Shown piece by piece: positions 566-9,483 of a stretch of DNA of 9,483 bases. Below the pieces are notes generated by a model. That model ran no database searches and was not told where the DNA came from. It saw only the letters and a list, made by a program, of their open reading frames with translations. This DNA is from Chloroflexota bacterium (GTDB lineage: Bacteria > Chloroflexota > Limnocylindria > Limnocylindrales > CSP1-4), in the NCBI GenBank assembly GCA_021785115.1, contig JAJYGO010000374.1, positions 1 to 9,483 of the forward strand, given 5' to 3'. Both the position numbers and the translations under genes were made by a program. The stretch's first letter is position 1. The number at the start of each line of letters is the position of its first letter.

Positions 566-945
566 TGGAGCCCGGCCCACCGACCCGACAGCCCGCCGCG
601 CCGGCCGTGCCGTCCGCGCGGGCAACCCGTGCGGATCCGACCGGCATGCGGATCATCCTCGGCGCCGGCGGCCTGGTCGCGCTCTCCGCGCTGGTCACCG
701 CGATCGTCGTGCCGCCGGCACCGGCATCGGCCCCTGCCCCGATCCCGGCCGCCTCCCCGGCCACGGTCGCGCGGCAGCGTCCCGTCCAGTACATTCAGCT
801 GGCGCCCGGTCAGTCACCGCCGCCCGGCGCAACGGTCATCGACGCGAAGGCGCCGAAGCCCGTCACCATCGTCACGCGGGTCCCGGCCCCCACGCCGAAG
901 ACCGTCGTGATCCGGACCACGCAGTCGGGGAAGGTGATCCCGTGA
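565..945 (+). CDS. small single-pass membrane protein, likely paralogue of the preceding gene
   Basis: This 126-aa protein has no recognised family. About 27 mostly Pro/Ala/Arg residues precede a hydrophobic helix (about 28-52), then a Pro/Ala linker (APIPAAS at 58-64) and an extracytoplasmic segment with repeated Pro and Val/Ile strands (VQYIQLAPG, KPVTIVTRV, KTVVIRTT). It shares APIPAAS and the TM-linker-strand layout with the protein before it. The start at 565 is supported by GGAGG at 554-558 with 6-nt spacing; the ATG at residue 28 lies too close to the membrane helix to be preferred. The stop overlaps the GTG start of apbE by 4 nt (GTGA), so translation is coupled. A Gly-Ala-Thr at residues 88-90 resembles the core of flavinylation sites, but the flanking acidic and Ser/Thr residues of such motifs are missing. 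Confidence 0.72.
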   Translation: MEPGPPTRQPAAPAVPSARATRADPTGMRIILGAGGLVALSALVTAIVVPPAPASAPAPIPAASPATVARQRPVQYIQLAPGQSPPPGATVIDAKAPKPVTIVTRVPAPTPKTVVIRTTQSGKVIP

Positions 946-1985
946 CGGCCGTCGCGGGCATGCGCCCCGCGGCGCGGTCCCGGCGCGTCCCCTCCTCCGC
1001 GGCCCCGGATCCCGCCATCCTGCTCCCCGTGGCCCCGGTCTCCGTCGCGACCCGCGCCATGGGCGGCCGGCTGGGCGTGCACGTGGACGCCGCTCCGCCC
1101 GAGGCGGAACGGGCCCGGCGCGACGGACGCCGCGTCCTGGCCCGGGTCGGTCGCTGGGCGGACAGGCTCAGCCGCCACCTCGGGACGTCCGAGCTCTCGA
1201 GGCTGAACACGGATCCGCGGCCACGGGTGCGCATCGGACCGACCCTCGCCGCCGTGCTGCGGGCCGCGATCGACGCGAGCGAGGCGAGCGACGGGCTCGT
1301 GGACATCGGGCTGCTGGACGCGCGGCTGGCAGCGGAGGGGATCCGCCCGGCGGGGATCGCCACCGAGGAGCTCGGCACGGCATGCCTCGGGACGTCGGCC
1401 CGCGCCTGGTCCCTGCAGGCCGAACCCCGGGGATGCGCCGTGGTCATCCGACCGCCCGGGCTTCGCCTCGACCTCGGTGGCGTCGCCAAGGGCTGGCTGG
1501 CCGACCGTGCTCTCGACCTGCTCGACGGCTGGCCGGGCGCGGTGGTCGACGCCGACGGCGACCTCGCGCTCCGTGCGGCTCCCGGCCGCTCCTGGTCCGT
1601 CGCCGTGGACGACCCACGGGCCTCGGGGGCCGCGCTGGCGGTGCTGCGCCTCTCGGCCCCGGCGCGTGGCTGGCCCGTGCGCTGGGGCGTTGCCACCTCG
1701 GGCACCTCGATCCATCGCTGGCTGCGCGATGGCACGGTGCGCCACCACCTGATCGATCCCCGCACGGGGCGTCCCGCGGTCACGGACGTCGTCCAGGCGA
1801 CCGTGGTCTGCGCCTCGGCCCTGCGCGCCGAGGCGCTCGCGAAGGCCGCGGTCATCGCCGGCACGATCGAGGGGCTGGCACTGCTGGACCGTGCCGGCGT
1901 GGGGGGCGCCATCGTCCTCACCGACCACGACGAGGTGCTTGCACTCCCCGGGACCCGGGACCTGCTGGCGGACGACGGCGACTGA
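942..1985 (+). CDS. apbE: FAD:protein FMN transferase (ApbE family)
   Basis: ApbE enzymes transfer FMN from FAD to a Thr/Ser of a target protein, usually an extracytoplasmic FMN-binding domain in an electron-transfer chain. The 347-aa product has the family's length and order of motifs: LSRHLGTSELSRLN (about 76-89), SDGLVDIGLLD (116-126), RLDLGGVAKGWLADRA (175-190), the W-V-DDP strand (218-225), VATSGTSIHRW (250-260) and HHLIDPRTGRP (268-278). No signal peptide or lipobox is visible, so it is probably cytoplasmic, unlike the lipoprotein forms. Departures from the common pattern: the usual GGD appears as DGD (about 204-206), and the usual ADALAT metal-site helix reads AEALAK (296-301), so Asp becomes Glu297 and Thr becomes Lys301. 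The GTG start at 942 has GGGGAAGG at 927-934 upstream. No FMN-binding substrate domain is encoded in this window; a target may lie upstream. Confidence 0.93.
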   Translation: MTAVAGMRPAARSRRVPSSAAPDPAILLPVAPVSVATRAMGGRLGVHVDAAPPEAERARRDGRRVLARVGRWADRLSRHLGTSELSRLNTDPRPRVRIGPTLAAVLRAAIDASEASDGLVDIGLLDARLAAEGIRPAGIATEELGTACLGTSARAWSLQAEPRGCAVVIRPPGLRLDLGGVAKGWLADRALDLLDGWPGAVVDADGDLALRAAPGRSWSVAVDDPRASGAALAVLRLSAPARGWPVRWGVATSGTSIHRWLRDGTVRHHLIDPRTGRPAVTDVVQATVVCASALRAEALAKAAVIAGTIEGLALLDRAGVGGAIVLTDHDEVLALPGTRDLLADDGD

Positions 1986-3245: not shown

Positions 3246-3258
3246 TACGCTGGAGGCA
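3246..3258 (+). promoter_or_regulatory. -10 element for leaderless transcription of the M50 protease gene
   Basis: TACGCT (3246-3251), preceded by GGG, is followed by exactly 6 nt and then the ATG at 3258. A start 7 nt past the hexamer would place +1 on the A of the start codon. The GGAGG at 3252-3256 leaves only one base before ATG, too close for normal Shine-Dalgarno use, which supports a leaderless transcript. tetR at the end of the window has the same spacing. Confidence 0.5.
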
Positions 3259-4376
3259 TGCGCAGCGGGTCGGTTCGCATCTTCCGCGTGGCCGGGATCG
3301 ACGTGCTCGTCCACGTCAGCTGGCTGGTGATCTTCGGCCTGGTCACCTGGTCGCTGGCCATCGGCTACTACCCGCCGCTGCTGCCGGACCTGACCCCGGC
3401 GCAGGCGTGGGTGCTCGGCGCCATCTCGGCGATCCTCCTCTTCGCCTCCGTTCTCGTGCACGAGCTCGCCCACTCCCTGCTGGCGCGCCACCGCGGGCTC
3501 GAGGTCGACTCGATCACGCTCTTCCTCTTCGGCGGCGTCTCGAGCCTCCGTGGCGACGCGCCGCGGGCGTCCACCGAGCTGCTGGTCGCGGCGGTGGGGC
3601 CGCTGACCAGCTTCGTCCTGGCGGCGGTCTTCCTTGCCGGCAGCGCCATCGCCGGCGACGCCCGGCTCGCCGCCGTGCTGGGCTACCTCGGGCTGATCAA
3701 TGCCCTCCTCGGCGCGTTCAACCTCGTGCCCGGCTTCCCGCTCGACGGCGGCCGCGTGCTCCGCGCCCTGGTCTGGCAGATCACCGGCGACATGCGGCGC
3801 GGCCTGGAGGTGGCCGTCGGCGTCGGCCAGCTCGTCGGCTACGGGTTCATGGCCTGGGGCGTGGTCGAGGTCCTCGCGGGCGATGCGTTCGACGGGATCT
3901 GGATCGCCGTGATCGGCTGGTTCCTGCAGGGCGCCGGCGCCGCCCAGCTCCGCCAGGTCCGCTCGGAGGCGCACCTGGGGGCGGTCCACGTCCGTGACGT
4001 CATGCGCGGCGACACGACCGCGGTGGGACCCAACACCACGGTGGAGGCGCTCATCGAGACGTACCTCCTGCCCGGCAACCGGCGGGCCCTGCCGGTCGTC
4101 TCCGACGAGCGCGTGGTGGGCATGGTGTCGGTCAGCGACATCCAGGGGGTCCCGGCCGACGAGCGATCCCTGACGCGGGTGGCCGACGTGATGGGCGGGC
4201 GCGGGGGCGTGGTGACGGTGACGCCCGAGATGCCGATCGCCCAGGCCCTGCAGGCGATGCTCACCGGCGATTACGAGCAGGTGCCGGTGGTGGAGGACGA
4301 GCGGCTGGTCGGCGTGCTGACGCGGGCCGACGTCGTCCGGCAGGTCCAGCTGCGGGAAGCGCTCCACCTCGAGTAG
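3258..4376 (+). CDS. M50 site-2-type membrane protease with tandem CBS domains
   Basis: This polytopic zinc protease should cleave within or next to the membrane, typically to release a membrane-held regulator or clear signal-peptide remnants. Of its 372 aa, the first 230 or so are hydrophobic segments: helices near 17-38, 48-67, 105-130, 138-157, 188-206 and 212-226. The zinc motif HELAH is at 68-72, with Glu69 as the expected catalytic base, and the second motif NLVPGFPLDGGR is at 155-166, with Asp163 as third zinc ligand. Two CBS domains follow (about 244-300 and 307-366), which in this family may sense adenine nucleotides. The architecture matches the Rip3-like, CBS-bearing M50 group rather than PDZ-bearing RseP. 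No substrate anti-sigma factor is adjacent. Transcription appears leaderless, and the gene converges on the acetyl-CoA ligase gene. Confidence 0.93.
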   Translation: MRSGSVRIFRVAGIDVLVHVSWLVIFGLVTWSLAIGYYPPLLPDLTPAQAWVLGAISAILLFASVLVHELAHSLLARHRGLEVDSITLFLFGGVSSLRGDAPRASTELLVAAVGPLTSFVLAAVFLAGSAIAGDARLAAVLGYLGLINALLGAFNLVPGFPLDGGRVLRALVWQITGDMRRGLEVAVGVGQLVGYGFMAWGVVEVLAGDAFDGIWIAVIGWFLQGAGAAQLRQVRSEAHLGAVHVRDVMRGDTTAVGPNTTVEALIETYLLPGNRRALPVVSDERVVGMVSVSDIQGVPADERSLTRVADVMGGRGGVVTVTPEMPIAQALQAMLTGDYEQVPVVEDERLVGVLTRADVVRQVQLREALHLE

Positions 4377-4478: not shown

Positions 4479-7241
4479 TCAGGGCGCCAGGCCCAGGATG
4501 GCCTGGACCCGGCCGCTCTCCGGGAGCGTGCGCAGGCTGAACCCGACCTTCTCGGCCGTCCGCTGCATGGGGATGTTGCCGGGCAGGATCTCGGCGCAGA
4601 TCCATTCCAGGCGCTCGTCGCGGCCGATATCCACCAGCCGCTGGAGCAGCGCGGTCCCGAGGCCCTGGCCCTGGCGTTCGTCGGCCACCACGATCGCGAA
4701 CTCGGCGGCGTTGGCGGCGTGGCGCTTGCTCAGCCGCCCCACGGCCACGATCTCCGGCTCGCCACCGGCGCCCCGCTGCTCGGCCACGAGCGCGATCTCC
4801 CGGTCGTAGTCGTTGAAGCAGACGCGGGTCAGCCGCTCGTGCGCGGTCCGCTCGTCGAGGCCGATGTCGCGGAAGTAGCGCTCGCGCACCGTCTGTTCCG
4901 ACAGGATGGCGTGGAAACGCGCCAGGAGCGGCTCGTCCTCCGGACGGATGGGGCGGATCACCAGCTGCGTGCCGTCGGGCGCGGTCCAGCTCCCCATGTA
5001 CCGCCGCGGGTACGGGCGGATCGCCAGCCGCGGCAGCTGCTCGACGGAGAGCCCCGGATCGTGGAGCACCACCCGCGCGTCCAGCGCGATCAGCCGCTCC
5101 GGCGAGGCGAGCAGCGGGTTGATGTCGAGCTCCCTGATCCAGGGCTGCTCGACCACCAGCTGGCTGACGCGCACCAGGATCTGCTCGAGCGCGCCGACGT
5201 CGATCGGCTGGCGTCCGCGGATCCCGGCGAAGGCACCGTAGATGCGGGTGCGCTCCATCATGCGGCGGGCGAGGGTGGTGTTGAGCGGCGGGATGGCGAG
5301 AGCACGATCCCGGAAGAGCTCCACCAGCTGGCCGCCCATGCCGAAGAGCAGGACCGGGCCGAACTGCGGGTCGATGCTGCTGCCCAGGATCAGCTCGTAG
5401 CCCGTGTAGTTGATCATGGGCTGGACGGTGACGCCCTCGAAGTGCTCGGCGCCGCGCCGCTGCTCGACGGCGGAGCGGATCGCCTGGTAGGCGCCGCGCA
5501 CGGCGTCGGCATCGCCCAGGTTCAGCTGGACCCCGCCCACGTCGGTCTTGTGGGTGATGGTGTGCGAGTAGAGCTTGACGACGACCGGATACCCGATCGC
5601 GTCCGCGGCCGTCACCGCCTCGTCCTCGGAAGCGGCGATCCGCGTCTCGGTGATGGGGATCCCGTAGGCGGAGAGGACCTGCTTGGACTCGTACTCCGTC
5701 AGGATCGTCCGGCCCTCGCCGCGGGCGGCTTCGATGACCTCCCGGGCGAGCGCCCGGTTGACTGCGCTCGCCTCGTCGTCCGGCAGGACAGGCGTCTCGT
5801 ACAGCGCCCTGAGGCCGTCGTTGTATCGCCACATGTAGTTGAACATGTCGACCGCGGTGTCCGGGTAGGGGAACGTCGGGATCCCGGCCCTCCGCAGGAC
5901 GGCCGTCCCGGCCTCCACGTCGGCGCCACCCATCCAGCTCGCCAGGACCGGCTTGCCCTCGATGTGGGCGAACGGCACCAGCTGCTCCGCGGTGCGCGTG
6001 GGGTCCGTCATGGCCTGCGGGGTGAGGATGACCAGCAACCCGTCGCTGCCGGGATCCTTCGCCGCGATCTCCAGGGCCGCCGCGTATCGTTCCGGGGGCG
6101 CGTCCCCGATGATGTCCACGGGGTTGTTGTGGCTCCACGGCCCCGGCAGGATCGCGTTGAACGCCTCCATGGTCTCCGGGGTGAGCTCGGTCAGCTGTCC
6201 GCCGCCGCCGATCAGCGCGTCGGTGGCGAGGACGCCCGGGCCGCCCGCGTTGGTGAGGATGCTGAGGCGCCGGCCCCGCGGACGAGGCTGCTTGGCGAGC
6301 ACCTCCGCGATCGAGAAGAGGTCCTCGATGGCGTCCACGCGCAGGACGCCGACGCGCCGGAACGCCGCATCCAGGACCTCGTCGCTCCCGGTCAGGGAGC
6401 CGGTGTGCGATGCGGCCGCCTTGGCCGCCTGGGCCGTGCGGCCGGGCTTGATCACCAGGATCGGCTTGGTCAGCGCGACCTCGCGCGCCGCGGAGAGGAA
6501 GGCGCGCGCGTCGCCCACCGTCTCCATGTAGATGATGATGCTGTTCGTGTTCGGGTCGTCGCCGAGGTGGTAGATCAGGTCGCCCCACCCCACGTCCAGC
6601 ATCGACCCGAGCGAGGTGACGGAGCTGAAGCCAACCTGCTCCTCGTGCGCCCAGTCCAGGATGGCCGTGAGGAGCGCCCCGCTCTGGCTGATGAGGCCCA
6701 CGTTGCCGGGACGGGAGATACCCGCAGCGAACGTCGCGTTCAGGCCGTTGATCGGGTTCATCACGCCCAGGCAATTGGGACCGATGACCCGGATCCGCCC
6801 GCGCCGCGCCTGCTCCAGGACCTGCCGCTCGAGCTCCTCGCCCTCCGGGCCGATCTCCTTGAAGCCGGCCGAGATCACGATGGCGCCGCGGACGCCCGCC
6901 TCCACGCACTCGGCCATCACGCCGGGCACCGACGGGGCGGGCGTGACGATGACCGCCAGCTCGACCGGGTCCGGCACGTCCGCGAGGCTCGGGTATGCCT
7001 TGAGGCCCAGGATGTTCGAGCGCTTCGGGTTGATGGGGAAGACGGTGCCTCCGAACGGGCTGCTGATCAGGTTCCAGAGCACGGTGCGCCCGACGCTCCC
7101 CGCCTTCTCGGTGGCACCGACCACGGCCACCGACTTGGGGGAGAAGAGGGCATCCAGCGGGCGGCGGCCGTAGCCGAGGACGTCGCTCGCCTCGTCCACG
7201 GCCGACAGCTTGGCCGTCCCGCTGCAGGTCTGATCGATCAT
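4479..7241 (-). CDS. ADP-forming acetate-CoA ligase fused to a GNAT acetyltransferase domain (Pat/PatZ-type architecture)
   Basis: The 920-aa protein joins a single-chain ADP-forming acetyl-CoA synthetase to a C-terminal GNAT domain. In order: Rossmann CoA-binding domain ([16 protein letters not shown], 37-52); succinyl-CoA-synthetase-like domains with [10 protein letters not shown] (154-163), ISQSGALL (184-191), ASHTGSLTG (278-286) and NNPVDI (372-377); an ATP-grasp domain (about 510-735) with [12 protein letters not shown] (564-575) and ELDINPL (704-710); and GNAT (about 758-915) with the acetyl-CoA loop QGQGLG (857-862). Synthetases of this family convert acetyl-CoA, ADP and Pi to acetate, CoA and ATP, reversibly, through a phosphohistidine; His279 is in the expected place. 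Enterobacterial Pat/PatZ has this layout, lacks synthetase activity, and acetylates lysines such as that of Acs. Here the His is present, so both activities are possible. The start is supported by GGAG 7 nt upstream. The gene is apparently monocistronic. Confidence 0.94.
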
Positions 7242-7424: not shown

Positions 7425-8159
7425 CTACGCGCGCCGGTTCATCACCCGGTGCGTCACGACGAACGAGGCGACGCACCACGCGGCCAGCAGCAGGAACGGC
7501 CCGGTCGTGAGCGGGAAGGTCCCTCCGGCCAGCGTGCCGCGGATCACCTCGCCCATCGCCTGGATCGGCAGCACCCGGTGGATGGCGGCCAGCCAGGAGG
7601 GCAGGCGGTCCGGCGGGAAGTTGAGCGGCGAGAACATCAGGACGAAGACCACCAGCACCTGTGTCAGCAGGTTGGCGAGCATGGCCGGCAGGAGGGAGGC
7701 GATGGCGTAGCCGATCGCCGTCGCGGTGAGCGCGACCAGGAGCATCGCGGGCACCACGAGCGGGCTGACCTGCAGCTCGAGCCCGAACCGCACGTCCCCG
7801 ACGGCGACCGCGAAGATGACACCCGGGAGAACCACGGCGAGCCAGACGCTCAGGTCCGCCAGCAGGTAGACCAGCCGCGGGACCGGGAGCGACCGCATGT
7901 AGTCCAGCGTCCCCTCGGTGCGGGACTGCGCGACCATCTGCGGCACCAGCACGAGACCCATGCTGATCAGGGTGATGGCGGGTGCGCCCGTGGCGAGGAA
8001 GAGGGTGGTGCTCCGGTCGAGGCCTGGGAAGAGGAGCGGGTACCCGATCACGATCCCCAGCGCGAGGAGGGTCTGGACCACGATGGCCAGGGGCAGGACC
8101 CCCTTGAGCCGTCGCGCCTGCCAGCCGACCAGCAGTCGATAGCTACGCAGCGTGGACAC
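7425..8159 (-). CDS. ABC-2-type transporter permease
   Basis: This 244-aa integral membrane subunit of an export-type ABC transporter has six hydrophobic segments, at about residues 21-43, 52-74, 97-120, 132-156, 160-178 and 218-236, the usual count and length for ABC-2 permeases. The cytoplasmic loop after helix 2 carries SRTEGTLDYMRSLPVPR (79-95), the family's conserved ATPase-contact region. The stretch from FSPLNFPP to VLPIQAMGE (176-204) is the typical ABC-2 pattern before the last helix. The GTG start at 8159 is supported by GGGAGGAG 7 nt upstream. It overlaps the ATPase gene by 17 nt, implying coupled translation and a shared complex. The substrate is unknown; drug, lipid or peptide export is usual for TetR-linked pairs. 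Confidence 0.9.
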   Translation of the reverse strand: MSTLRSYRLLVGWQARRLKGVLPLAIVVQTLLALGIVIGYPLLFPGLDRSTTLFLATGAPAITLISMGLVLVPQMVAQSRTEGTLDYMRSLPVPRLVYLLADLSVWLAVVLPGVIFAVAVGDVRFGLELQVSPLVVPAMLLVALTATAIGYAIASLLPAMLANLLTQVLVVFVLMFSPLNFPPDRLPSWLAAIHRVLPIQAMGEVIRGTLAGGTFPLTTGPFLLLAAWCVASFVVTHRVMNRRA

Positions 8160-9120
8160 CGGCCAGCTCCTCCCGTGCGATGGTGCGCGACTCCGGCTGG
8201 AGCGCGTCGGCGCGCCCGACCGCCCCGATGTAGACGTCCTCGAGCGTGGCCGGGGCGAGCGAGAACTCCTCGACCGTTCCGGCGCGCCGCAGCTGCTGGG
8301 CCCATGCGGCCGCGTCGGAGGCCTCGCCCGCCGGAACCGTCGCCAGGACGCGGTGGCCGTTGCGCGTCACGCGCCGGACGAACGGCGCCATGGCCGGGGC
8401 GTCGGCCCCGGGTTCGAGCACGAGCTCGAGCCGGAGGTCCTCGGCGAGCCCGGCCTTCAGGCTGGACGGCGTTCCCTCCACCACCACCCGGCCGTGGTCC
8501 AGGATGGCCAGGCGATCCACCGCCCGCTCCGCCTCGATCACGTTGTGGGTCACCAGCAGGACGGCGGCGCCGTCATCGGCGAGCCGGCGCACCTGCGCCC
8601 ACAGGAGACGGCGTCGCACCGGGTCGACGTCGTTGGTCGGCTCGTCGAGGATCACCACCCGGCCCGGCGCGACGGCCGCCATGCAGAACGACACCAGCCG
8701 CTTCACGCCGCCCGAGAGCCGGACACCGTCGACGTCGAGCCATTCGTCCAGCTCGAGGGCGGCGGACAGGGCCCGCGAGCGCCGGTGCACGTCCGGCGCC
8801 GTGGCCCCCCGCAGCCGTCCGACCAGGCCGATCGCCTGGCGCGGAGTCAGCCCGGCGATCGGCACCTGGGCCTGCGGCTGGATCGAGCAGCGACGGCGCG
8901 CCTCGTCCGGGCGAGCCACCGCGTCGACGCCGTCGATGTGGATGGAACCCGTGTCGGGGCGCAGCAGGCCCACCACCTGGTTCGCGAGCGTGGTCTTGCC
9001 GGCGCCGTTGTGCCCCAGGAGGCCGTACACCTCGCCGGCCCCCACCTCCAGGGTCACGCCGTCGTTGGCCCGGACGCCGCCGCGATAGGTCTTGGTCACG
9101 TCGACGATCTCCAGCAGCAT
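8143..9120 (-). CDS. ABC transporter ATP-binding protein
   Basis: This nucleotide-binding subunit (325 aa) powers the adjacent permease. Walker A is GHNGAGKTT (36-44), the Q-loop lies near Gln81/Gln83, the signature is LSGGVKR (135-141), Walker B is VVILDEP (155-161) and the H-loop is His192. The signature has Val where Gln is common, and the D-loop reads NDVDP instead of the usual SGLDP. A C-terminal extension (about 225-325) of beta-type sequence ending in LAPATLEDVYIGAVGR is typical of drug-export ABC-2 ATPases. The ATG at 9120 is chosen: GGAGG lies 7 nt upstream, and the protein starts with the family-typical LLEIVDVTKTY. An in-frame ATG at 9192 would add 24 atypical residues but lies almost exactly at the predicted transcription start. 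Transcription is probably from the TTGACA/TACTCT promoter under the dyad array. Confidence 0.93.
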   Translation of the reverse strand: MLLEIVDVTKTYRGGVRANDGVTLEVGAGEVYGLLGHNGAGKTTLANQVVGLLRPDTGSIHIDGVDAVARPDEARRRCSIQPQAQVPIAGLTPRQAIGLVGRLRGATAPDVHRRSRALSAALELDEWLDVDGVRLSGGVKRLVSFCMAAVAPGRVVILDEPTNDVDPVRRRLLWAQVRRLADDGAAVLLVTHNVIEAERAVDRLAILDHGRVVVEGTPSSLKAGLAEDLRLELVLEPGADAPAMAPFVRRVTRNGHRVLATVPAGEASDAAAWAQQLRRAGTVEEFSLAPATLEDVYIGAVGRADALQPESRTIAREELAGVHAA

Positions 9121-9190: not shown

Positions 9191-9257
9191 ATACCGCAGA
9201 GTATGCAATACCTTCCGGTATGTCAATACTCTCCAGTATCGTGATACCTGGTGGTAT
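9191..9257. promoter_or_regulatory. array of four operator-like dyads between tetR and the ABC operon
   Basis: Four 14-bp dyads follow one another: ATACC-gcag-AGTAT (9191-9204), ATACC-ttcc-GGTAT (9208-9221), ATACT-ctcc-AGTAT (9226-9239) and ATACC-tggt-GGTAT (9244-9257). Dyads 2, 3 and 4 are perfect inverted repeats; dyad 1 has one mismatched pair. Steps between dyads are 17, 18 and 18 bp. TetR-family proteins bind such dyads as dimers, and the divergent tetR gene makes its product the obvious candidate ligand. The array covers the -10 and flanks the -35 of the ABC promoter, and dyad 4 runs into the tetR -10, so occupancy should repress both genes. Confidence 0.88.
9198..9226 (-). promoter_or_regulatory. 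promoter of the ABC transporter operon
   Basis: On the minus strand, TTGACA (9226-9221, a perfect -35) is followed by a 17-bp spacer and TACTCT (9203-9198, -10). The predicted start is at about 9191, 71 nt ahead of the ATPase ATG at 9120. The -10 lies inside dyad 1, the spacer holds dyad 2, and dyad 3 begins at the first base of the -35, as expected for a repressed promoter. Confidence 0.75.
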
Positions 9258-9267
9258 GCTTTGCCGA
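9252..9267 (+). promoter_or_regulatory. extended -10 promoter of tetR, leaderless geometry
   Basis: TGG-TATGCT (9252-9260) is an extended -10. Six bases separate it from the ATG at 9267, placing the predicted +1 on the start codon. No -35 resembling TTGACA is seen at 17-18 bp upstream, and no Shine-Dalgarno precedes the ATG. The hexamer shares TAT with the last half-site of dyad 4. Confidence 0.6.
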
Positions 9268-9483
9268 TGAGCAGCGAACGATTGGGGCGCCAGGCACGCA
9301 AGGAGCTGACGCGGCAGCTGCTGATCGACGCGGCGGCCGCCGTCTTCGCGCGCCAAGGGTTCGACGCGACCTCGCTCGACGCGGTGGCCGAGGCAGCCGG
9401 CTTCACCAAGGGCGCGGTGTACTCGAATTTCCGCAGCAAGACGGACCTGATCATGGCGCTCATCGAGCGACGGATGTCCGAGC
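9267..9483 (+). CDS. TetR/AcrR-family transcriptional regulator, 5' part only
   Basis: The first 72 codons are present; the gene runs off the window. The sequence is a canonical TetR DNA-binding domain: helix 1 ELTRQLLIDAAAAVFARQGF (about 13-32), TSLDAVAEAAGF (helix 2 to 3 turn) and the recognition segment TKGAVYSNFRSKTDLIMALIERR (about 47-69). Proteins of this family are dimeric repressors released by a small ligand, often a substrate of the pump they control. It is divergent from the ABC-2 operon across a 146-bp gap filled with four dyads, so local autorepression and control of the transporter are the natural inference. The ligand-binding domain lies outside the window, so ligand class cannot be judged. 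The ATG at 9267 is the only sensible start; an ATG at 9256 runs into a stop after four codons. Confidence 0.92.
   Translation, partial: MSSERLGRQARKELTRQLLIDAAAAVFARQGFDATSLDAVAEAAGFTKGAVYSNFRSKTDLIMALIERRMSE

What the first reader, a model, noticed from the sequence alone, without database searches (positions are those of the whole stretch)
9191..9257. Four-dyad operator array covering two divergent promoters
Directly visible: four consecutive ATAC(C/T)-N4-(G/A)GTAT dyads at steps of 17, 18 and 18 bp, filling the tetR/ABC gap. TetR operators are usually one or two dyads; four closely packed sites covering both promoters suggest cooperative binding of several dimers and a steep switch. At 18 bp (about 1.7 turns) neighbouring dimers would sit on different faces of the helix, which would allow dense packing. 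That the encoded TetR protein binds here is inference.
Basis: partly seen in the sequence, partly recalled or inferred. Interest (0 to 1): 0.8.

Follow-up and report, generated by a model that had tools for sequence, protein, structure and literature searches.

The report
Four-site operator for exporter repressor
In a Chloroflexota bacterium the DNA between a repressor gene and an exporter gene carries four evenly spaced copies of the repressor's probable binding site, partly built into the promoters; most relatives with this gene pair keep the layout, and the sites change together with one amino acid of the repressor.

Summary
Four perfect ATAC-N6-GTAT dyads lie at 9191, 9208, 9226 and 9244; shuffles give 0.01. 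They sit between a tetR-family gene (ATG 9267) and a divergent ABC exporter operon. Of 15 tetR genes found beside this ABC gene (own species included), 14 keep four sites in an 18-bp register (17/18/18 in this genus), most with one or two weakened. Of 30 examined loci of the ABC gene, 14 of 14 with a tetR match carry dyads and 0 of 16 without. Site follows protein: regulators with Lys at recognition-helix position 44 (DarR numbering) have a pyrimidine at dyad position 5 in 132 of 134 half-sites, those with Arg a purine in 51 of 52; the tree needs two changes. A probable tetR -10 shares bases with dyad 4, so the tetR mRNA is probably leaderless; a conserved TTGACA on the exporter strand bridges dyads 2 and 3. 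Binding, cooperativity and a steep switch remain untested. The half-site is DarR's; four dimers between divergent genes recalls EthR. New variant of a known kind.

The parts
9191..9204 (.). Dyad 1, ATACCGCAGAGTAT, over the probable exporter -10 region
   Evidence: register conserved in relatives
9208..9221 (.). Dyad 2, ATACCTTCCGGTAT, within the exporter promoter spacer; 6 of 8 arm bases in L025, L026 and L029
9226..9239 (.). Dyad 3, ATACTCTCCAGTAT, over the tetR -35 region
9244..9257 (.). Dyad 4, ATACCTGGTGGTAT; its last three bases begin the probable tetR -10
9221..9226 (-). TTGACA, probable -35 of the exporter operon promoter, bridging dyads 2 and 3
   Evidence: linker GTCA in 11 of 13 aligned relatives outside the genus and in the 3 rows of this genus (window, L007, L024; in L024 the hexamer is TTGACG); the other two linkers are not conserved
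9255..9260 (+). TATGCT, probable tetR -10; six bases before the ATG, so probably a leaderless mRNA
   Evidence: TAnnnT-N6/7-(A/G)TG in 19 of 19 regulators tested, against 21 of 3033 random pieces of the same loci and a mean of 1.7 of 19 (largest 7) in block shuffles
9267..9483 (+). tetR-family regulator gene, cut by the window end; the complete 252-aa copy was read in the species assembly (L007:1526-2281)
   Evidence: TetR_N on the window part; TetR_N and TetR_C_6 above Pfam cut-offs on the full copy; open frame
8143..9120 (-). ABC exporter ATPase, DrrA-like
   Evidence: ABC_tran 80.7 bits; best NCBIfam match drrA, 179.3 bits, below its cut-off of 312.45
7425..8159 (-). ABC-2 membrane permease; its start overlaps the ATPase gene's end by 17 bp
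   Evidence: ABC2_membrane 49.3 bits; coordinates

Best explanation
The four dyads are adjacent binding sites for dimers of the TetR-family protein encoded at 9267. They are built into the two back-to-back promoters: dyad 4 shares bases with the tetR -10, dyad 3 covers the tetR -35 region, the 4-bp linker between dyads 2 and 3 is the core of the exporter -35, and dyad 1 covers the exporter -10 region. With no ligand, up to four dimers cover about 67 bp and shut off both genes (autorepression plus repression of the exporter). A ligand, probably an exported toxic compound, would release the protein and open both promoters. Shown by comparison: conservation, co-occurrence with tetR, covariation of site and protein, and the tetR -10 pattern. 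Inferred: binding itself, repression, the ligand, and whether the dimers cooperate.
For: Co-occurrence: (E up to 1e-15) found 21 tetR homologues with an HTH; 20 have at least two dyads with 7 or 8 of 8 arm bases within 180 bp upstream, and the exception (L042) has Ile where the others have Lys or Arg. Of 30 examined ABC loci, 14 of 14 with a tetR match have dyads and 0 of 16 without. Paired dyads, sought without regard to genes, occur in 16 of 177 class genomes, against 0 of 177 for the reversed pattern; in each of the 16 genomes the fetched locus has a tetR homologue beside the array. Covariation: Lys, pyrimidine at position 5 in 132 of 134 half-sites of 19 genes; Arg, purine in 51 of 52 of 9 genes; two changes on the tree. 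Precedent: DarR binds ATACTN4AGTAT and its Lys44 and Gly45 read T-x-C (PMC10636190). Geometry: steps between neighbouring strong dyads are 18 bp in 37 and 17 bp in 4 of 46. Promoters.
Against: No binding or expression data exist. The covariation rests on two independent changes, so half-site counts overstate its weight; the pivotal protein L045 is flagged as a long branch, though starred branches force two changes. The MAGs are fragmentary. In L037 and L018 no match to this ABC gene was found in the fetched stretch, so the array does not depend on that target. The exporter -10 is unresolved, and the window's own tetR -35 (TCCAGT at 17 bp, by eye) is poor. L025, L026, L029, L038 and L040 each have one site with only 6 of 8 arm bases, so four strong sites are not strictly required.
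Confidence: 0.88

Rival explanations
1. Same operator, but the pitch comes from the promoters and the dimers bind independently. Dyad arms double as -10 and -35 boxes, so their spacing is tied to the promoter spacer; there is no cooperativity.
For: In the Arg-type group 7 of 8 exporter-side sequences read TTGACG-17-TAnnnT, with the -35 in the middle dyad and the -10 on the next arm. In the window's group the tetR -10 starts at dyad position 12 in 16 of 19 genes. The dyad 2-3 linker is itself the exporter -35.
Against: The 17-18 bp pitch also holds for pairs that no mapped promoter joins: the far pair of L037 (18 bp apart, 50 bp from the near pair) and the tetR-side pair of the Arg-type group (all its steps together: 15 of 17 bp, 1 of 18). 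Unmapped promoters there are not excluded.
Confidence: 0.4
2. Cooperative four-dimer complex, EthR-like: neighbouring dimers touch and fill the array together, giving a steep switch.
For: Fixed pitch across diverged linkers and beside three exporter classes; EthR binds a 55-bp operator between divergent genes as a cooperative octamer (passages in PMC9210681 and PMC5403819).
Against: No contact surface was modelled; EthR's repeats differ; decay of one site is tolerated in five relatives.
Confidence: 0.45
3. A different regulator encoded elsewhere binds the dyads.
For: None found; binding was not measured.
Against: Dyads follow tetR, not the ABC gene, and follow the helix residue of the adjacent tetR; the assembly has no other paired-dyad array.
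Confidence: 0.04
4. The dyads are RNA hairpins or a chance repeat.
For: Inverted repeats can fold; RNA folding was not tested here.
Against: Centres vary while arms and register persist across genera; the predicted tetR transcript would start downstream of the array; chance expectation is 0.01.
Confidence: 0.01

Closest known systems
DarR of mycobacteria and Rhodococcus (PMC10636190; abstract, passages and section 13 seen)
   Same: Operator core ATACT-N4-AGTAT equals this dyad. Counting from the Thr-Lys-Gly of the recognition helix, this protein has the named DarR contact residues Thr43, Lys44, Gly45, Tyr48, Ser53 and Lys54 (TKGAVYSNFRSK); Tyr49 is Ser here.
   Different: DarR puts two dimers on one overlapping 20-bp site, with centres 3 bp apart by my reading of the marked centres; here 6 of 55 dyads have one extra half-site at +/-3 bp and none has both. 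Sequence matches to DarR cover only the HTH, and DarR is not among the 50 of 823 fold matches shown.
EthR of M. tuberculosis (passages in PMC9210681 and PMC5403819; original paper not seen)
   Same: TetR family, divergent gene pair, repressor of both genes, four dimers on one short operator.
   Different: EthR's 55-bp operator has direct and inverted repeats of another sequence, not four separate perfect dyads; its octamer is measured, this one is inferred.
TetR with its two tet operators (passages in PMC3511530 and PMC9210681)
   Same: Divergent repressor and exporter, operators overlapping both promoters.
   Different: Two 15-bp operators instead of four dyads at 17-18 bp pitch.
QacR (passages in PMC4482099 and PMC9210681)
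   Same: More than one dimer per operator; efflux gene target.
   Different: A pair of dimers on a single 28-bp palindrome.

Membership tests
TetR family (TetR/AcrR) | N-terminal TetR HTH domain | tested here: met
   TetR_N 60.2 bits, cut-off 24
TetR family (TetR/AcrR) | All-helical C-terminal ligand-binding domain | tested here: met
   TetR_C_6 40.3 bits, cut-off 27; AlphaFold2 monomer model all helical, mean pLDDT 83.7, ends and 104-120 weak; the fold matches shown are TetR-type or transcriptional regulators
TetR family (TetR/AcrR) | Dimer binds palindromic DNA near its own gene | tested here: inconclusive
   Palindromes, co-occurrence and covariation shown; binding needs an experiment
DarR | ATACTN4AGTAT operator read by Lys44-Gly45 | tested here: met
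   Same half-site spacing in 53 of 55 dyads and same helix residues; position 5 may be C or T here
DarR | Detectable homology beyond the HTH | tested here: not met
   Profile matches to DarR stop near position 80
DarR | c-di-AMP or cAMP site between subunits | not tested
   ligand site not examined
DarR | Two overlapping dimers 3 bp apart on each site | tested here: not met
   single extra half-sites are commoner at -6 bp (16 of 55), and both halves occur at -5 bp in 2 and at +4 bp in 1
EthR-type octameric operator | Divergent pair with one short operator for four dimers | tested here: inconclusive
   Four dyads in 67 bp between divergent genes; occupancy not testable here
EthR-type octameric operator | Cooperative octamer formation | not testable with these tools
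   needs binding assays
NCBIfam equivalog regulators (ScbR, AcrR, MtrR and others) | Score above the family cut-off | tested here: not met
   best ScbR family 64.6 bits, cut-off 150; none of the 20 listed reached its cut-off
DrrA exporter ATPase | NCBIfam drrA score above cut-off | tested here: not met
   179.3 bits against 312.45: drrA-like only

The most novel reading that the evidence does not exclude
A lineage of TetR-family exporter switches in this class of Chloroflexota builds its promoters out of repressor sites: two, three or four DarR-type dyads at 17-18 bp pitch supply -10 and -35 bases themselves, and the dimers wind round the DNA as a short helical array. Recognition-helix residue 44 (Lys or Arg) and dyad position 5 (pyrimidine or purine) form a readable specificity code that keeps paralogous switches in one cell apart; three genomes (G019, G020, G056) hold both types.
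Probability: 0.4. Interest if true: 0.6.

Novelty: new variant of a known kind. Interest (0 to 1): 0.5.

Why it matters
I found no described TetR-family operator with four separate full dyads in the papers opened. Natural variants here differ in site number (two, three, four), pitch (17 or 18 bp), target (ABC, MMPL, MFS exporters) and specificity residue, so they form a ready series for asking how site number and spacing shape an efflux switch. The Lys/Arg code could help predict operators of uncharacterised TetR regulators from sequence.

Tried and rejected
A wider hunt beyond the class gave little: of 400 phylum genomes 8 matched (reversed control: 1), 4 of them outside the class; only G421 lies beside a tetR homologue (33% identity, steps 18, 16, 18), and the other three (L051, L052, L053) gave no tetR match. 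The consensus promoter scan found no sigma-70 site, probably because its thresholds miss these boxes. The exporter -10 could not be fixed: TACTCT at 17 bp and CATACT at 15 bp both fit the window (by eye). A DarR-type second dimer at 3 bp was tested and rejected. Literature: searches; seven papers opened, passages only, plus one section of PMC10636190. These name EthR, QacR, CgmR, RolR and DarR as multi-dimer cases; none of what I saw describes this array, but only open-access papers are held. The 2004 EthR paper was not seen. One further array in G019 (contig C78) was not fetched. The AcrR lead (Arg in the helix of an AcrAB repressor; ATACA in the E. coli operator, PMC10597343 passage) fits the code, but its ATAC and GTAT lie 10 bp apart instead of 6, so I do not count it. 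Rows dropped: L013 (contig-cut tetR) is in the dyad counts but not in the tree; L037, L041, L045 and L047 are not in the column alignment, and L037, L041, L045, L047, L054 and the Arg group are not; three ABC rows of 33 (G051:C131, G039:C7, G070:C122) were not examined, of which G039:C7 is known from L016 to have tetR and dyads; the -10 test covers 19 genes and leaves out L042, L054 and the Arg group.

Full report
What is there. The window carries four ATAC-N6-GTAT dyads at 9191, 9208, 9226 and 9244 with no mismatch. Shuffled sequence gives 0.01 such dyads on average and never four in 200 trials. In the 2.8-Mb assembly assigned to the window (84% complete), these four are the only perfect matches of ATACYN4RGTAT. 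To the right, at ATG 9267, begins a TetR-family gene that runs off the window; its full 252-aa counterpart was read in that assembly, and it matches no NCBIfam equivalog at cut-off. To the left, on the minus strand, lie an ABC ATPase (8143-9120) and an ABC-2 permease (7425-8159). The best NCBIfam match of the ATPase is drrA, below cut-off. The organism is a Chloroflexota MAG: the nearest named record is 'Chloroflexi bacterium isolate WY3.bin147'. A Limnocylindria-like class is my recollection from genome sizes, not tested.

Conservation. A pattern search that knew nothing of genes found paired dyads in 16 of 177 genomes of the class (own included), against 0 of 177 for the reversed pattern. 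For each of the 16 genomes one array locus was examined and each has a tetR homologue beside it; a second array in G019 was not fetched. A protein search (E up to 1e-15, at most 15 candidates scored per genome) gave 25 rows in 20 of 177 genomes, which are 23 genes. Two of these, in G040 and G043, were matched only in the C-terminal half. Of the 21 with an HTH, 20 have two or more dyads with at least 7 of 8 arm bases within 180 bp upstream; the one without (L042) has Ile instead of Lys or Arg in the recognition helix. Fifteen, own species included, stand divergent to the same ABC gene. Fourteen of the fifteen keep four sites in register with at least 6 of 8 arm bases each; L045 keeps three at that level, two of them strong. 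In 19 regulators of this wider group (18 Lys-type and L045), 37 of 46 steps between neighbouring strong dyads are 18 bp, 4 are 17, 4 are 36 (one weak site skipped) and 1 is 50. The window's genus has 17, 18, 18.

Which gene do the dyads follow? The ABC gene was searched separately: 33 rows in 26 of 177 genomes, of which 30 loci were examined. Fourteen have a tetR match in the fetched stretch and all 14 have dyads; sixteen have none, and none of these has a dyad with 7 of 8 arm bases within 300 bp upstream. So the dyads belong to the regulator. Within the window's own genus two of eight genomes have the regulator, and the same two have paired dyads.

Protein-DNA covariation. Homologues with Lys at the position equal to DarR Lys44 (19 genes, including L054 from outside the class) have a pyrimidine after ATAC in 132 of 134 half-sites. 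Those with Arg (9 genes) have a purine in 51 of 52. The tree of 28 proteins (19 Lys, 8 Arg, 1 Ile; the contig-cut Arg protein L013 left out) needs two changes for each label, and its starred branches force two. The Arg protein L045 sits beside the Lys protein L036 in an ABC-linked clade (93/82; the five-row clade is starred), though it is flagged as a long branch; its perfect dyad is ATACACATGTGTAT. The Fisher value printed ignores relatedness and should not be used; two switches are the real sample. DarR, with Lys44, binds ATACTN4AGTAT, and its Lys44 contacts the G opposite the C of T-x-C, which fits. Three genomes (G019, G020, G056) hold both a Lys and an Arg switch.

Promoters. In 19 of 19 regulators tested a TAnnnT box ends six or seven bases before an ATG or GTG; 21 of 3033 random pieces of the same loci show this, and block shuffles of the same upstream regions average 1.7 of 19 with a largest value of 7. 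In 16 of 19 the box starts at position 12 of the last dyad, so operator and -10 share bases; the arm itself supplies TAT, so the sixth-base T and the distance to the start codon are the independent part. The mRNA is then probably leaderless. A tetR -35 is visible in several relatives (TTGAGT in dyad 3), but is poor in the window. On the exporter side, the linker between dyads 2 and 3 reads GTCA in 11 of 13 aligned relatives outside the genus and in the three rows of this genus, giving TTGACA on the minus strand (TTGACG in L024); the other two linkers vary. The -10 on that side is unresolved. In the Arg-type group of eight loci, 7 of 8 have TTGACG-17-TAnnnT towards the other gene, again made of dyad bases; four of these eight loci were tested with Pfam (L008, L010, L012, L013) and all four have an MMPL exporter there, L008 being the one without that promoter. 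L041 and L047 have MFS exporters.

How it works. Best reading: dimers of the TetR protein occupy the dyads and block both promoters; a ligand releases them. Turning 18 bp at 10.5 bp per turn places the next dimer 257 degrees round, so four would wind round the helix. Whether they touch is open. In favour of packing is a pitch that survives without linker conservation; against it, promoter spacing could set much of the pitch. Most dyads look like one-dimer sites: of 55 dyads in 15 arrays, 53 have both DarR-type half-sites at their own centre, 6 have one extra half-site at +/-3 bp and none both; one extra half-site occurs at -6 bp in 16, and both halves at -5 bp in 2 and +4 bp in 1.

Comparison with known systems. 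The regulator meets the TetR-family definition by sequence, predicted fold and fold search. It shares DarR's half-site and contact residues but no detectable C-terminal sequence similarity and not its overlapping double dimer. EthR is the nearest functional parallel: a 55-bp operator between divergent genes, bound cooperatively as an octamer (passages in PMC9210681, and PMC5403819). TetR itself has two operators between divergent genes (passage in PMC3511530).

Verdict. The steep-switch claim is plausible and untested. I file it as a new variant of a known kind.

Noticed in passing
L008-L014, L046 (relatives): A paralogous Arg-type TetR group has three dyads at 17-bp pitch (one step of 18); the divergent gene is an MMPL exporter in the four loci tested with Pfam.
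   Followed up: partly
L041:1741-1771, L047:2213-2243 (relatives): Two-dyad arrays at 17-bp pitch lie between a Lys-type tetR and a divergent MFS exporter.
   Followed up: partly
L007:2281-2845: In the species assembly the tetR stop overlaps the start of a GFO/IDH/MocA oxidoreductase gene (ATGA), so autorepression may also govern that enzyme.
   Followed up: partly
L033:1501-1833, L034:1618-1887: Frames matching only the C-terminal half of this TetR, with no HTH match found, in two related genomes.
   Followed up: no
L018:1-1377: Four-dyad array kept before tetR although the fetched stretch upstream holds an MFS gene on the same strand instead of the divergent ABC gene.
   Followed up: partly
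window 4479-7241 (-): Large protein joining CoA-binding, succinyl-CoA-ligase-like, ATP-grasp and GNAT acetyltransferase domains.
   Followed up: no
window 942-1985 and 3258-4376 (+): ApbE-family protein, and an M50 peptidase with CBS domains.
   Followed up: no
L054:1483-1548: A tetR homologue outside the class (G421) has an array with steps 18, 16, 18.
   Followed up: partly
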